Shown here piece after piece: positions 11,966-23,381 of a stretch of 23,381 nt of DNA. Location of the stretch: IMG/VR virus record IMGVR_UViG_3300013094_000285, positions 1 through 23,381 of that record; one strand, 5' to 3'. The notes beneath the pieces are model-generated. The model had not been told where the DNA came from and ran no database searches. It saw only the letters and a list, made by a program, of their open reading frames with translations. The DNA is from a virus. Each line of letters starts with the position of its first letter. Position 1 is the first letter of the stretch. The position numbers and the translations under genes were made by a program.

Positions 11966-11995
11966 CAGTACACTGATGATCAGTACACTGATGAT
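11966..11995. repeat. Tandem 15-bp direct repeat
   Basis: CAGTACACTGATGAT occurs twice in perfect tandem at 11966-11980 and 11981-11995. It lies between the DnaA-box cluster and the late promoter. Iteron-like protein binding or a duplication by slippage are both possible. Confidence 0.7.
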
Positions 11996-12107
11996 TTATG
12001 GCATGGCCTAGAGATTCGCTGGGCATCTATTCGGCACGATACCCCTAGGGGGTAGGGCTGGGTTAGGTACTGCGGAGAGGGGGGCCCACTCACCCATTCC
12101 CAAATTT

Positions 12108-12138
12108 TTTACAAAAACTTTTCTAACCTGCGTATAAT
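12108..12138 (+). promoter_or_regulatory. Candidate late-operon promoter
   Basis: A perfect TATAAT lies at 12133-12138. Upstream, TTTACA (12108-12113) is a possible -35 with a long 19-base spacer, preceded by an A/T-rich run. An activator may compensate for the spacing. Transcription would start near 12145, immediately before the structured leader. Confidence 0.5.
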
Positions 12139-12151
12139 AAACATACACGCA

Positions 12152-12274
12152 TGAGGATTAAATTGTCGGTCTAATCCGAACTGGATAAACATAACCAGAG
12201 TCCTCAGCCGTGTTGGTGAATAACCCGAGATAAGAGTGCCAAGGTTGATGCACGGATTGGCAGTGCCACCAACA
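12152..12274 (+). ncRNA. Candidate structured 5' leader RNA (two domains)
   Basis: Domain 1: TGAGGATT (12152-12159) pairs with AGTCCTCA (12199-12206), with one wobble pair. It encloses TCGG/CCGA (12166-12169, 12176-12179) and CTGG/CCAG (12181-12184, 12195-12198), and so forms a three-way junction. Domain 2: TGTTGGTG (12211-12218) pairs perfectly with CACCAACA (12267-12274) and encloses TGCCAA (12237-12242) with TTGGCA (12257-12262). The leader starts just after a TATAAT and ends about 10 bases before the ribosome site of the first late gene. I could not assign a known riboswitch class. No T-run follows, so any control would be of translation or processing. Confidence 0.5.
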
Positions 12275-12294
12275 ATCTAATTGAAAGGAATAGT

Positions 12295-12855
12295 ATGGAA
12301 TGGACATTGGCACATCCTCTGCATGACGTAGAGGACATAGTGAGTTTGGCTGACATGAACTATGGGTCAGAGATAGACGGGATATTGAAGAGGGATCGCA
12401 ATGTTTTCCGGCATCGGGTTACAGTTGCGACTACCGAGCAGATCTTTAATAAGTCCCGAGAGTTCATTGCAGTGTGTAGACAAGAACAAGAAATTCCTTT
12501 GGTAAATCTCCAAGGCGATATTGTTGGACGAACTACTGATTACAAGCTCCTTGGGTTTTGCTGGTTTGATCGGGGTGGTTATACAACCTACTCTAATGAA
12601 GAGATCAGCAATGCAAAATTTCACCACATTGATCTTTCTCTTAGTCCTCGCACTCGGGTTCGTCTTGTTAATGAGATGATTGACCAACATATCCTATGGG
12701 CGCATACTTACGGGATACCTATTATTTGCTCAACTTCCATCAGGGCGGAGCATAATGGGTTTATAAAGATTCACCAAAAGCGTGGGTTCACAGTGAATGG
12801 CTCCTATGCTTGGATTCGTACAGAAGAGGCAATGAAGTGTTTGACCAACCAATAA
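12295..12855 (+). CDS. GNAT-like acetyltransferase fold protein
   Basis: The 186-residue product follows GAAAGGA. The sequence has the layout of a degenerate GNAT fold: central strand LGFCWFDRGGYTTYSNEEIS, then KFHHIDLSLSPRTRVRLVNE, a helix (MIDQHILWAHTYGIPIICST) and an end with GFIKIHQKRGFTVNGSYAWI. The HQKRGFTVNGSYAWIR tail corresponds to the strand 6-7 region of acetyltransferases. Similar genes open the structural module of many marine and freshwater podoviruses, where the target is unknown. It is the first late gene, behind the structured leader. It overlaps the next gene by 19 bases. Confidence 0.7.
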   Translation: MEWTLAHPLHDVEDIVSLADMNYGSEIDGILKRDRNVFRHRVTVATTEQIFNKSREFIAVCRQEQEIPLVNLQGDIVGRTTDYKLLGFCWFDRGGYTTYSNEEISNAKFHHIDLSLSPRTRVRLVNEMIDQHILWAHTYGIPIICSTSIRAEHNGFIKIHQKRGFTVNGSYAWIRTEEAMKCLTNQ

Positions 12856-14658: not shown

Positions 14659-14847
14659 ATGGAAGATTTTTCTGCAAAATTTCAGCAGAAACTTTCAGGC
14701 CAAGCCGAAGTCTGTGCTCGTAAAACCCTTGAATGGTTACAAAAAGACCTTCAGGGGGATAAGCAACTGACTCCGGCTGACGTCTATTACCTGTCGAAAG
14801 CTGCTGATGTCTTGCTGACGATCAGGGACGACTATGGCAAAAAGTGA
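14659..14847 (+). CDS. 62-aa protein, alternative small-terminase candidate
   Basis: The ATG directly follows the TAA of the preceding gene (TAAATG), and the end overlaps terL by 14 bases. The product is helical and charged (MEDFSAKFQQKLSGQAEVCA, then KTLEWLQKDLQGDKQLTPAD and VYYLSKAADVLLTIRDDYGKK). Coupling to terL suggests a packaging accessory or small terminase, although it is shorter than most known small subunits. No helix-turn-helix is clear. Confidence 0.6.
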   Translation: MEDFSAKFQQKLSGQAEVCARKTLEWLQKDLQGDKQLTPADVYYLSKAADVLLTIRDDYGKK

Positions 14848-16426
14848 AGCATCTGATTACATCCAGCCGATCTACAAAGATCGTGCTTTAAAACACCTCG
14901 TCAAACTTGCTGGTGGCAAACGTGCCGTCAAAGAACTTGATGCTGAACAACTCCGCAAAATGAAAGTTGCCAGAGACAAGATTGCAACTGATATGCAGTT
15001 CAATCAGCTCAAATGGTTCCGTCCTTTTGAATACCAAAAGAAATTCTTTGAGACTGGCGCTCATTTTGCTCGTCGTGGCATGATTGCTGCCAACCGTGCT
15101 GGCAAAACCATTGCGTCTACTTATGAAACTGCCTATCACCTGACTGGCAGATACCCTGATTGGTGGAAAGGCAAGCGCTGGGACAAGCCAATCATTGCTA
15201 TGGCGGCTGGTGAATCATGGGAACAGGTGGCTAAGACCTTGCAATCCAAGTTGTTGGGTTGCGACGACATCAAGCAAACGTATAAACTAGGGACAGGATC
15301 AATCCCCAAGGAATACATTGATGAAAAATCATACCGATCTGATGGGCAAAACGTGCTTAGTATCGAGATCTGGCACGTTACTGGGGGAAAGTCCAAGCTT
15401 TACTTCTCCAACTACACGCAGCAAGTACGTCACCTCCAAGGGTTCGAGCTTGATTTGGTTGTCCTTGATGAACAGCCACCAGATGAAACTTTTTCAGAAC
15501 TTGTTGTGCGTACAGCGGCTAGAAATGGACAGGTTATCTGCTCATTTACCCCACTCAAAGGGTTGTCAGGACTCGTCCGAAAATTCTGGGATCAAATAGA
15601 AGGCTATTCTCATGTGCGTGTAACGTGGGATGACATTCCTTACGAGAACGAATGGGGCGAAGTATTCTTTTCCAAGCAAGAGCGTGAACAACTTTCACGA
15701 GACTTTATGCCTTGGGAGCGTGAATGCCGCATAAACGGTATTCCTTTGGTGGGCAAAGGCGTTGTTTTCCCAATGCTGACGTGGCCTACCTACAAATCCA
15801 TTGACAAAGACCTGCTCAACAATGAAAAACTTGAGCGATTGATTAGTTTTGATTTGGGAATTAAGAATGACCCGACGATTATCTCGTTCCTATTTAGAGA
15901 CCCTGTTGAAGAAAAGATTTACCTTCACAGGCAAATCAAAATCCCTTCTGGCGAGACGCCTGACGAATACGTACATTATTTACTTGATCGAGAGTCCCGA
16001 GGGGTTCCAATTGCGCTCCCACATGATGCTGGTTTGGCGGGACGATATACGCTTACTGAGCAGTCAGTTAGGGAAGTTTTTGAAGACTCCTACGGCCTTA
16101 ACTGCATTCCGGGCGCGATTCTTAACCCGCCAAACGACCAAGGCAAAGTAACAAACCATAAAGCGTATGGAATCAATATAATGCGCCTAGGCATGGAACG
16201 TGGAACCTTCTTGATTAACGAATCTTGCACGGAATTCCTTGATGAAGCTAGAAATTATGCGATTGATGACAATGGCAGATTCACAGACCCTGATGACTGC
16301 ATTGACTCAGCCCGTATTGGCGTTCTAGCATTGATTCAAGGCCACGGAGAAGCTATGGTGAGCCGAGCCAATATGTTGGCAACAAAACGATTTGCCCCGT
16401 TGTCGGGTAAGTATCAGAGGATTTAA
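14834..16426 (+). CDS. terL: Terminase large subunit
   Basis: The 530-residue product is the DNA-packaging motor. The ATPase half has a Walker A motif AANRAGKT at about 85-92 and a Walker B LDLVVLDE at 206-213 with the catalytic Glu213. A coupling motif is probably SFTPLKG near 237. The nuclease half begins LISFDLGIKNDPTIISFLF, whose Asp340 is the first metal ligand, and ends with DPDDCIDSARIG, whose Asp cluster (485-491) supplies the last. Length is normal for the family. The start overlaps the 62-aa gene and an AGGG lies upstream. The enzyme cleaves concatemers and fills the prohead through the portal encoded next. Confidence 0.93.
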   Translation: MAKSEASDYIQPIYKDRALKHLVKLAGGKRAVKELDAEQLRKMKVARDKIATDMQFNQLKWFRPFEYQKKFFETGAHFARRGMIAANRAGKTIASTYETAYHLTGRYPDWWKGKRWDKPIIAMAAGESWEQVAKTLQSKLLGCDDIKQTYKLGTGSIPKEYIDEKSYRSDGQNVLSIEIWHVTGGKSKLYFSNYTQQVRHLQGFELDLVVLDEQPPDETFSELVVRTAARNGQVICSFTPLKGLSGLVRKFWDQIEGYSHVRVTWDDIPYENEWGEVFFSKQEREQLSRDFMPWERECRINGIPLVGKGVVFPMLTWPTYKSIDKDLLNNEKLERLISFDLGIKNDPTIISFLFRDPVEEKIYLHRQIKIPSGETPDEYVHYLLDRESRGVPIALPHDAGLAGRYTLTEQSVREVFEDSYGLNCIPGAILNPPNDQGKVTNHKAYGINIMRLGMERGTFLINESCTEFLDEARNYAIDDNGRFTDPDDCIDSARIGVLALIQGHGEAMVSRANMLATKRFAPLSGKYQRI

Positions 16427-22830: not shown

Positions 22831-23381
22831 ATGGCAACAGGTGGTCTTTACGGAAGTGCTCCAAACGGGACATTAATTGCAGGTCCTGAAGCTGAATCTG
22901 CTGGCTTATACGGTCAAGCTGTGGTTTATGGCGGCACTTATTTTGAGTGGTTTGTGTTTCAGGTTTCTCCAACACAACCAGCTACTCCTACTGGCGGCTC
23001 ATGGAACTTTCAAACCAACGTAGGAACTCCTCCTAGCGGTTGGTCAAGCTCAATTCCTAATTCTCCTACAGGTACTGTTTGGGCATCTATTGCGATTGTT
23101 AACTCACGTAGCACATCTGCATTAGTTTGGTCAACGCCCGGTTTGTTTTACATGCAAGGCGCTCAAGGACCGACTGGCCCTACAGGAGCTCAAGGTAATA
23201 CTGGACCGACTGGTCCTACTGGTGCTCAAGGGCAACAAGGTATTCAAGGTATTCAAGGTATTCAAGGTAATACAGGCGCTACAGGTCCTACAGGTAATAC
23301 AGGTCCTACAGGTAATACAGGTCCTACAGGTAATACAGGTCCTACAGGTAATACAGGTCCTACAGGTCCTACAGGAGCCCA
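22831..23381 (+). CDS. Collagen-like tail or fibre protein (partial)
   Basis: The ATG at 22831 follows AAGGA. The first 108 residues are a small globular head with [20 protein letters not shown] and [19 protein letters not shown], rich in aromatic and small residues. From residue 110 the frame is a strict Gly-X-Y repeat ([12 protein letters not shown]..., then GIQ and GNTGPT triplets) running to the edge of the window. This builds a collagen-like triple helix, found in trimeric phage fibres and needles. Few prolines are in the Y position and Thr is common, as in bacterial collagens. The C-terminal, probably receptor-binding, part lies outside. Confidence 0.85.
23239..23373 (+). repeat. Coding tandem repeats in collagen region
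   Basis: GGTATTCAA is repeated three times in tandem (23239-23265). Four copies of an 18-base unit GGTCCTACAGGTAATACA follow from 23284 to 23355, then two half-units. The copies are identical at DNA level, so they are recent and prone to slippage. All lengths are multiples of nine, so changes keep the Gly-X-Y frame. Confidence 0.9.

What the first reader, a model, noticed from the sequence alone, without database searches (positions are those of the whole stretch)
12139..12290. Unassigned two-domain structured RNA leader in front of the late operon
Between a TATAAT and the first late gene, two independent stem systems nest cleanly: a three-way junction closed by TGAGGA/TCCTCA, and an 8-bp perfect TGTTGGTG/CACCAACA stem enclosing TGCCAA/TTGGCA. 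The region is non-coding on both strands, and I cannot match it to a known riboswitch class by eye. A phage sensing a host metabolite or state before making its virion would be new.
Basis: partly seen in the sequence, partly recalled or inferred. Interest (0 to 1): 0.65.

Follow-up and report, generated by a model that had tools for sequence, protein, structure and literature searches.

The report
Mix-and-match phage RNA modules
The stretch in front of this phage's late genes is one copy of a previously uncatalogued family of phage RNAs in which one fixed hairpin scaffold carries more than a hundred different, freely exchanged inserts, possibly a stock of RNA decoys against bacterial defences, although that function is inferred and not shown.

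Summary
The RNA leader is real, but it is not a lone riboswitch. Window 12142-12278 is one unit of a modular RNA family found in at least 127 loci (189 units), nearly all from uncultivated phages. A constant hairpin (CCAA[C/G]ACG-CA-UGRRGAUUG … CAGUCYYCA-GC-CGUGUUGG) encloses an insert that falls into 109 sequence clusters. A second variable domain, closed by UUGG…CCAA, follows. The scaffold stems covary strongly (73 double-change cells against 19±3 in shuffles). Inserts are shuffled: 34 of 41 repeated first-domain inserts occur with more than one unrelated second domain. The window's first insert recurs in five other contigs and its second domain in one more, next to other genes. Units occur in tandem, next to tRNA genes (twice directly after a tRNA's CCA), and mostly in terminase operons of unrelated phages. 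The window's closest relatives have the same promoter and ribosome-binding site but no leader, so it is optional cargo and not an essential sensor. Rfam has no match, and only one of 50,697 phage records carries it. Most likely these are trans-acting structured RNAs, such as decoys or antitoxin mimics aimed at host RNA-targeting defences. One array ends in an abiF antitoxin RNA. The function is inferred (confidence about 0.4); the architecture is shown.

The parts
12133..12138 (+). TATAAT, -10 box of the probable late promoter; no good -35, but an A/T-rich element (12102-12123) is conserved in relatives
   Evidence: Sequence. The same box and A/T element occur in relatives with and without the leader. 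Transcript start not shown.
12142..12278 (+). The accessory RNA unit (domain 1 + domain 2 + tail), absent as one block from L002, L003 and L004
   Evidence: Match to relatives stops at 12142 (AATAAAC) and resumes at 12279 (AATTGAAAGGAATAG), with 7 other nt between. The model R2 hit starts at 12142.
12145..12149 (+). 5' strand of outer stem A (ACACG), pairs 12209-12213 (CGTGT); 8 positions long (CCAAxACG) in most relatives
   Evidence: Covariation over 100 scaffolds: 740 paired cells against 731±1.2 and 10 double changes against 1.1±1 in shuffles. Pair probability in the window 0.3-0.8.
12152..12159 (+). 5' strand of the inner scaffold stem (TGAGGATT)
   Evidence: Pairs 12199-12206; 891/900 cells paired and 73 double-change cells against 19±3.
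12160..12198 (+). Variable insert of domain 1: two hairpins, 12166-12179 and 12181-12198, making a three-way junction
   Evidence: Same insert in L148, L156, L215, L216 and L217 with other neighbours (one C-to-T change in L216/L217). Hairpin probabilities 0.86-0.98.
12199..12206 (+). 3' strand of the inner scaffold stem (AGTCCTCA)
12207..12216 (+). Constant GCCGTGTTGG: 3' side of stem A; its TTGG also opens domain 2
   Evidence: Constant across the family. TTGG pairs upstream or downstream with mean probabilities 0.44 and 0.48 over 89 units; in the window 0.08 and 0.84.
12211..12274 (+). Domain 2: closing stem TGTTGGTG/CACCAACA around a variable body
   Evidence: 98.8% identical in L100 with a different domain 1 and a different gene. 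The closing stem covaries across the family (second pair beyond TTGG 71/84 against 52.8±2.6). The body fold in the window is not significant.
12275..12278 (+). Tail ATCT after CCAACA; usually ACCA, ACCT or ACTA in relatives, where the next unit or the gene leader follows
12284..12289 (+). AAAGGA, ribosome-binding site of the GNAT-like gene
   Evidence: Conserved in relatives without the leader.
12295..12855 (+).
   Evidence: ORF; 80 relatives in viral contigs; no PHROGs family.
14834..16426 (+). Large terminase subunit (operon context)
   Evidence: phrog_2, E 1.8e-21.

Best explanation
SHOWN: The leader is one unit of a modular phage RNA family. A constant, covarying hairpin scaffold carries an exchangeable insert, followed by a second exchangeable domain that shares UUGG with the scaffold. 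Units are optional at this site, occur singly or in tandem, keep company with tRNA genes, and lie co-directionally at the head of or inside phage operons. INFERRED: They are trans-acting structured RNAs that the phage makes with its late (sometimes early) transcripts. The constant stem acts as a folding, processing or stability scaffold and as the homology at which inserts are swapped. The inserts are the active part. The most likely targets are host RNA-binding or RNA-cutting defence proteins (RNA-antitoxin systems, tRNA nucleases), which the inserts titrate or mimic. An arms race of that kind would explain why the scaffold is fixed while the inserts turn over.
For: (1) Covarying scaffold with a fixed U·G wobble that gives the RNA strand, and the same strand as the next gene in 107 of 124 loci. 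(2) Insert turnover: 109 domain-1 clusters among 189 units, and 34 of 41 repeated clusters paired with several unrelated second domains. Some inserts move between domain-1 and domain-2 position (L078 with L019/L042; L199 with L158). (3) Optional at the site: empty in L002-L004 and at least 15 relatives in all, or replaced by tRNA genes. (4) tRNA company: units start directly after a tRNA's CCA in L001 and L154; L121 has a domain 2 that Rfam calls a tRNA; T-arm-like elements in 5 of 141 inserts against 0.18 in shuffles. (5) One domain-2 family is an H-type pseudoknot with all 7 pairs of its second helix compensated. (6) The array in L102 ends in an Rfam abiF RNA, 55.2 bits, with no AbiF-like gene seen in that 4-kb contig; abiF RNA is an experimentally shown antitoxin RNA (PMC12373285). 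(7) Precedents: phage pseudo-ToxI RNA that neutralises ToxN (PMC5449768), RNA anti-CRISPRs (PMC10651486), and phage tRNA amplification against Septu (PMC13096335).
Against: No target, expression or phenotype is shown. The abiF case is 1 of 50 records tested. Inserts fold only slightly better than shuffled sequence on average (mean z -0.58 for domain 1, -0.30 for domain 2). No host counterpart of an insert was found: the pseudoknot family had no match in 399 Burkholderiales or 398 same-phylum genomes, although those searches lacked a positive control. Fixed scaffolds with changing inserts could also arise from recombination alone.
Confidence: 0.4

Rival explanations
1. A cis-acting mRNA leader element: a 5' structure or processing site that stabilises or matures the late operon mRNA, built from tRNA-like parts because RNase P, RNase E or RNase III act on it. 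The inserts are neutral filler.
For: In the window the unit begins a few nt after the -10 box. It is co-directional with the next gene and keeps company with tRNAs. The scaffold is strictly conserved while the insides vary.
Against: At least 15 relatives have the same promoter and gene with no leader. Identical inserts are retained across unrelated phages, and inserts fold with their own compensatory changes, which neutral filler would not do. Many units lie inside operons and not at a 5' end.
Confidence: 0.22
2. A selfish or recombination-driven cassette system: scaffold stems are sites at which inserts are exchanged, like integron attC hairpins, with no benefit to the phage needed.
For: Combinatorial reassortment, tandem copies, clean presence/absence at one site, and short identical ends at every unit.
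Against: The stem asymmetry (fixed U·G wobble, CA/GC internal loop) and the strand bias point to RNA and not DNA hairpins. No linked recombinase or transposase family emerged among shared neighbour proteins. Inserts carry compensated RNA structure.
Confidence: 0.15
3. A riboswitch or attenuator in which UUGG pairs either with the upstream CCAA (stem A) or with the downstream CCAA (domain 2), switching late expression in response to a ligand.
For: UUGG is shared: predicted pairing is split 0.44 upstream and 0.48 downstream over 89 units. In L222 the upstream ATCA, the middle TGAT and a downstream ATCA all differ together from the usual CCAA/TTGG/CCAA.
Against: No conserved ligand core; inserts are unrelated. 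No constant downstream gene. The leader is absent in many relatives. No terminator was predicted between the unit and the gene in the window.
Confidence: 0.1
4. An RNA that acts on the phage's own machinery: a put-like antitermination RNA, or a packaging RNA, given the position beside terminase genes.
For: Many arrays lie within 2.5 kb of terminase genes of several unrelated types. In the GNAT group the unit often directly follows the late promoter.
Against: Some arrays lie between a DUF2815-type gene and DNA polymerase (gene names from memory) or before a Cro/YdaS-like gene. Close relatives lack the unit. Such an RNA should keep its recognition core.
Confidence: 0.08

Closest known systems
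Type III toxin-antitoxin RNA antitoxins (ToxI, abiF RNA) and phage pseudo-ToxI
   Same: Short structured RNAs, often tandem, some pseudoknotted; phages can carry mimics (PMC5449768). One array here ends in a bona fide abiF RNA.
   Different: No toxin gene identified next to the arrays. Unit size and sequence unlike ToxI. The scaffold is constant while the inserts belong to over 100 unrelated types.
Phage tRNA genes and tRNA arrays
   Same: Same genomic slots; units can start right after a tRNA CCA; a few inserts have a T-arm, and one domain 2 is called a tRNA.
   Different: The window unit has no tRNA call. Most inserts lack D- and T-arms. Constant scaffold sequence is shared by all.
GOLLD and ROOL RNAs
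   Same: Large ornate non-coding RNAs; GOLLD is lake-derived and phage-linked (my recollection; structures in PMC12286853).
   Different: No Rfam match to either in any locus scanned. Units are 60-200 nt with exchangeable inserts, not one conserved RNA of several hundred nt.
Integron attC sites and cassettes
   Same: Conserved imperfect inverted repeats bounding exchangeable content.
   Different: Here the inverted repeat is an RNA stem with a fixed U·G wobble. Inserts are 26-106 nt and non-coding. No integrase-like neighbour family was seen.
RNA anti-CRISPRs (Racr, PMC10651486)
   Same: Phage-encoded short RNAs that work by mimicry.
   Different: No CRISPR-repeat resemblance was tested for or noticed. 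Inserts are longer and very diverse.

Membership tests
Riboswitch (any Rfam class) | Match to a described family at its curated threshold | tested here: not met
   0 matches in the window; only chance-level hits at E up to 10.
Riboswitch (any Rfam class) | Conserved ligand-binding core across members | tested here: not met
   The inner part is replaced wholesale: 95 clusters in 170 inserts, 109 in 189 units.
Riboswitch (any Rfam class) | Constant regulated gene or pathway downstream | tested here: not met
   Units precede several types of terminase, polymerase, regulator and other genes; in close relatives the gene occurs without the unit.
Riboswitch (any Rfam class) | Ligand-dependent structural switch | not testable with these tools
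   Only a predicted competition for UUGG.
tRNA | Cloverleaf with D-, anticodon and T-arms | tested here: not met
   ARAGORN: none in the window. A few relatives have a tRNA-like domain.
Type III antitoxin RNA | Adjacent cognate toxin gene | tested here: inconclusive
   No toxin family emerged among shared neighbours, but defence libraries were not run on the neighbours.
Type III antitoxin RNA | RNA neutralises a toxin protein | not testable with these tools
   Needs experiment. Only the abiF RNA in L102 belongs to a family with that function shown elsewhere (PMC12373285).
GOLLD/ROOL | Match to the Rfam models | tested here: not met
   No match in the window, nor in 33 further loci at gathering score and 19 at a permissive threshold.
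Integron cassette/attC | DNA-level recombination site with linked integrase | tested here: inconclusive
   No shared integrase among neighbour proteins. RNA-type asymmetry of the stem. Recombination itself not testable.
The modular family described here (model R2) | Scaffold stems A and inner with variable insert | tested here: met
   Window 12142-12216, 42.4 bits, E 1.9e-12; the window was not in the training set.

The most novel reading that the evidence does not exclude
A previously unknown class of phage RNA in which a constant hairpin scaffold displays a large, recombining repertoire of structured RNA inserts, used in trans to neutralise many different host RNA-targeting defence systems: in effect a natural combinatorial library of RNA decoys passed between unrelated phages.
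Probability: 0.35. Interest if true: 0.93.

Novelty: categorically new. Interest (0 to 1): 0.8.

Why it matters
No RNA family I know of, and none in Rfam 15, has a fixed scaffold with more than a hundred unrelated exchangeable bodies. If the inserts are decoys, each one points at a host RNA-binding defence, so the arrays would be a map of unknown defence systems in uncultivated bacteria. If they are not, the family is still a test case for how structured RNAs shuffle modules. It was probably missed because only one of 50,697 catalogued phage records carries it.

Tried and rejected
Rfam at gathering and permissive thresholds gave nothing in the window. The direct phage-record search with the leader gave only chance 20-24-mers apart from the MW202484 scaffold. 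Scaffold-only queries found MW202484 alone. The genome scan gave 14 exact 18-mer hits; full units were found only in two Burkholderiales MAG contigs (L201, L209), with one more divergent unit, next to an endolysin-like gene, in a 37-kb contig (L222). Of the weaker model hits in bacterial genomes, L223 and L224 lie in a near-identical, apparently coding stretch and were discounted, and the rest were not followed. The host search for the pseudoknot family was empty but had no positive control. I considered and rejected: lone riboswitch (empty sites, no core), integron attC (RNA asymmetry), pRNA or put site (variable core, other contexts), GOLLD (no match). Two regexes for the pseudoknot family failed before the right spacing was used. 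A literature search for this family found no description; the library lacks most subscription journals and nearly all preprints.

Full report
WHAT IS THERE. The window is a 23,381-base IMG/VR virus record. Position 12142-12278 lies between a TATAAT box (12133-12138) and the ribosome-binding site of the first gene of the packaging operon (12295-12855), followed by large terminase, portal and major head genes. The 5' domain folds better than chance (z -3.15), the 3' domain does not (z -0.54), and Rfam is silent.

IT IS A FAMILY. Searching with the downstream protein gave 80 related phage loci. Their leaders are not simply homologous. Many carry ACACGCATGRRGATTG…CAGTCYYCAGCCGTGTTGG around unrelated inserts. 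In the loci held I counted 189 units. Up to four units stand in tandem. ACACGC is usually preceded by CCA, CTA or TCA, so the full scaffold stem reads CCAA[C/G]ACG - CA/GC internal loop - UGRRGAUUG, then the insert, then CAGUCYYCA - CGUGUUGG.

THE SCAFFOLD IS AN RNA STRUCTURE. Over 100 distinct scaffolds the inner stem is paired in 891 of 900 cells, with 73 double-change cells against 19±3 in shuffles. The outer stem has 740 paired cells against 731±1.2 and 10 double changes against 1.1±1. A 30-unit alignment gives 8 pairs with double changes against 2.7 in shuffles, and sliding the partner destroys the pairing. RNAalifold, given 12 units, finds both stems unprompted. A conserved U·G wobble and a CA/GC internal loop define the RNA strand, and the next gene lies on that strand in 107 of 124 loci. 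A model built without the window finds it at 42.4 bits. Caveat: loci were chosen by an exact 18-mer on the 3' side, which understates variation there.

THE INSERTS ARE EXCHANGED. Domain-1 inserts of 26-106 nt form 109 clusters at 85% identity. Of 41 clusters with more than one member, 34 occur with more than one domain-2 type; the reverse holds for 32 of 37. The window's domain-1 insert is found in L148, L156, L215, L216 and L217, and its domain 2 in L100, with other partners and other genes. Some inserts have moved between the two positions. Inserts have structure of their own. The AAGCCAG…CTGGCTT domain-2 family is an H-type pseudoknot: its second helix has compensatory changes at all seven pairs, and 44 double-change cells were seen against 13.9±3.8. 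Average folding z-scores are only mildly negative (-0.58 and -0.30).

SHARED UUGG. UUGG ends domain 1 and opens domain 2. Predicted pairing is split almost evenly between the upstream and downstream CCAA over 89 units (0.44 and 0.48). In L222 all three segments differ together (ATCA/TGAT/ATCA, read). In the window the downstream pairing is favoured (0.84).

IT IS OPTIONAL CARGO. Relatives L002 (98.6% identical over 12001-12142), L003 and L004 have the same promoter and then directly AATTGAAAGGAATAG. Among 70 GNAT-group loci, 15 are empty, 22 carry units, 6 carry only tRNA genes, and the rest carry second-domain-like modules, other ORFs, or could not be classed. This argues against an essential sensor and for cargo. 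The tRNA company is close: units follow a tRNA's CCA directly in L001 and L154, L216/L217 look the same by eye, and L121 has a domain 2 that Rfam scores as a tRNA.

WHERE ELSE. Arrays sit before or between terminase genes of several unrelated types, but also between other phage genes and before Cro/YdaS-like genes. Of 50,697 phage records only MW202484 carries the scaffold. In bacterial genomes full units were confirmed in two Burkholderiales MAG contigs and, in divergent form, beside an endolysin-like gene in a third genome.

HOW IT MAY WORK. The best reading is a trans-acting RNA whose constant stem folds, processes or protects the insert and offers homology for exchange, while the insert is aimed at a host target. 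The only direct functional hint is L102: its array is followed within a few bases by an Rfam abiF RNA (55.2 bits) and its 4-kb contig shows no AbiF-like protein. That RNA is a demonstrated antitoxin (PMC12373285). Phage RNA mimics of ToxI (PMC5449768), RNA anti-CRISPRs (PMC10651486) and tRNA amplification against Septu (PMC13096335) are precedents. The hint is one case in 50 records. Rivals are listed with their tests. I put the functional reading at about 0.4 and the architectural description above 0.95.

NOVELTY. No Rfam family and no paper found here describes it, with the limits of the library noted. I call it categorically new as an architecture, not as a proven function.

Noticed in passing
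L102:1269-1305 (+): An Rfam abiF antitoxin RNA (RF03085, 55.2 bits) lies just after a unit array, between small- and large-terminase-like genes, and doubles as a terminator hairpin; no AbiF-like protein in the 4-kb contig.
   Followed up: partly
window 12047-12123: A G/C-rich then A/T-rich block (AGAGGGGGGCCCACTCACCC…AAATTTTTTACAAAAACTTTT) is strongly conserved at DNA level in most relatives, with or without a leader; it may be a late-promoter activator site or a packaging site.
   Followed up: no
window 11966-11994: Tandem repeat CAGTACACTGATGAT on the + strand, which forms a terminator-like hairpin on the - strand.
   Followed up: no
L121:482-622 (-): A domain-2 module scored as a 141-nt tRNA, apparently a tRNA with a long insertion, inside a tandem array of three units.
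   Followed up: partly
L216 and L217, reverse strand: A unit follows what looks like a tRNA-Met gene ending in CCA, has no domain 2, and is followed at once by a ribosome-binding site and a gene.
   Followed up: no
window 22831-23379: An open frame with a collagen-like [10 protein letters not shown] repeat runs off the end of the window, probably a tail or appendage protein.
   Followed up: no
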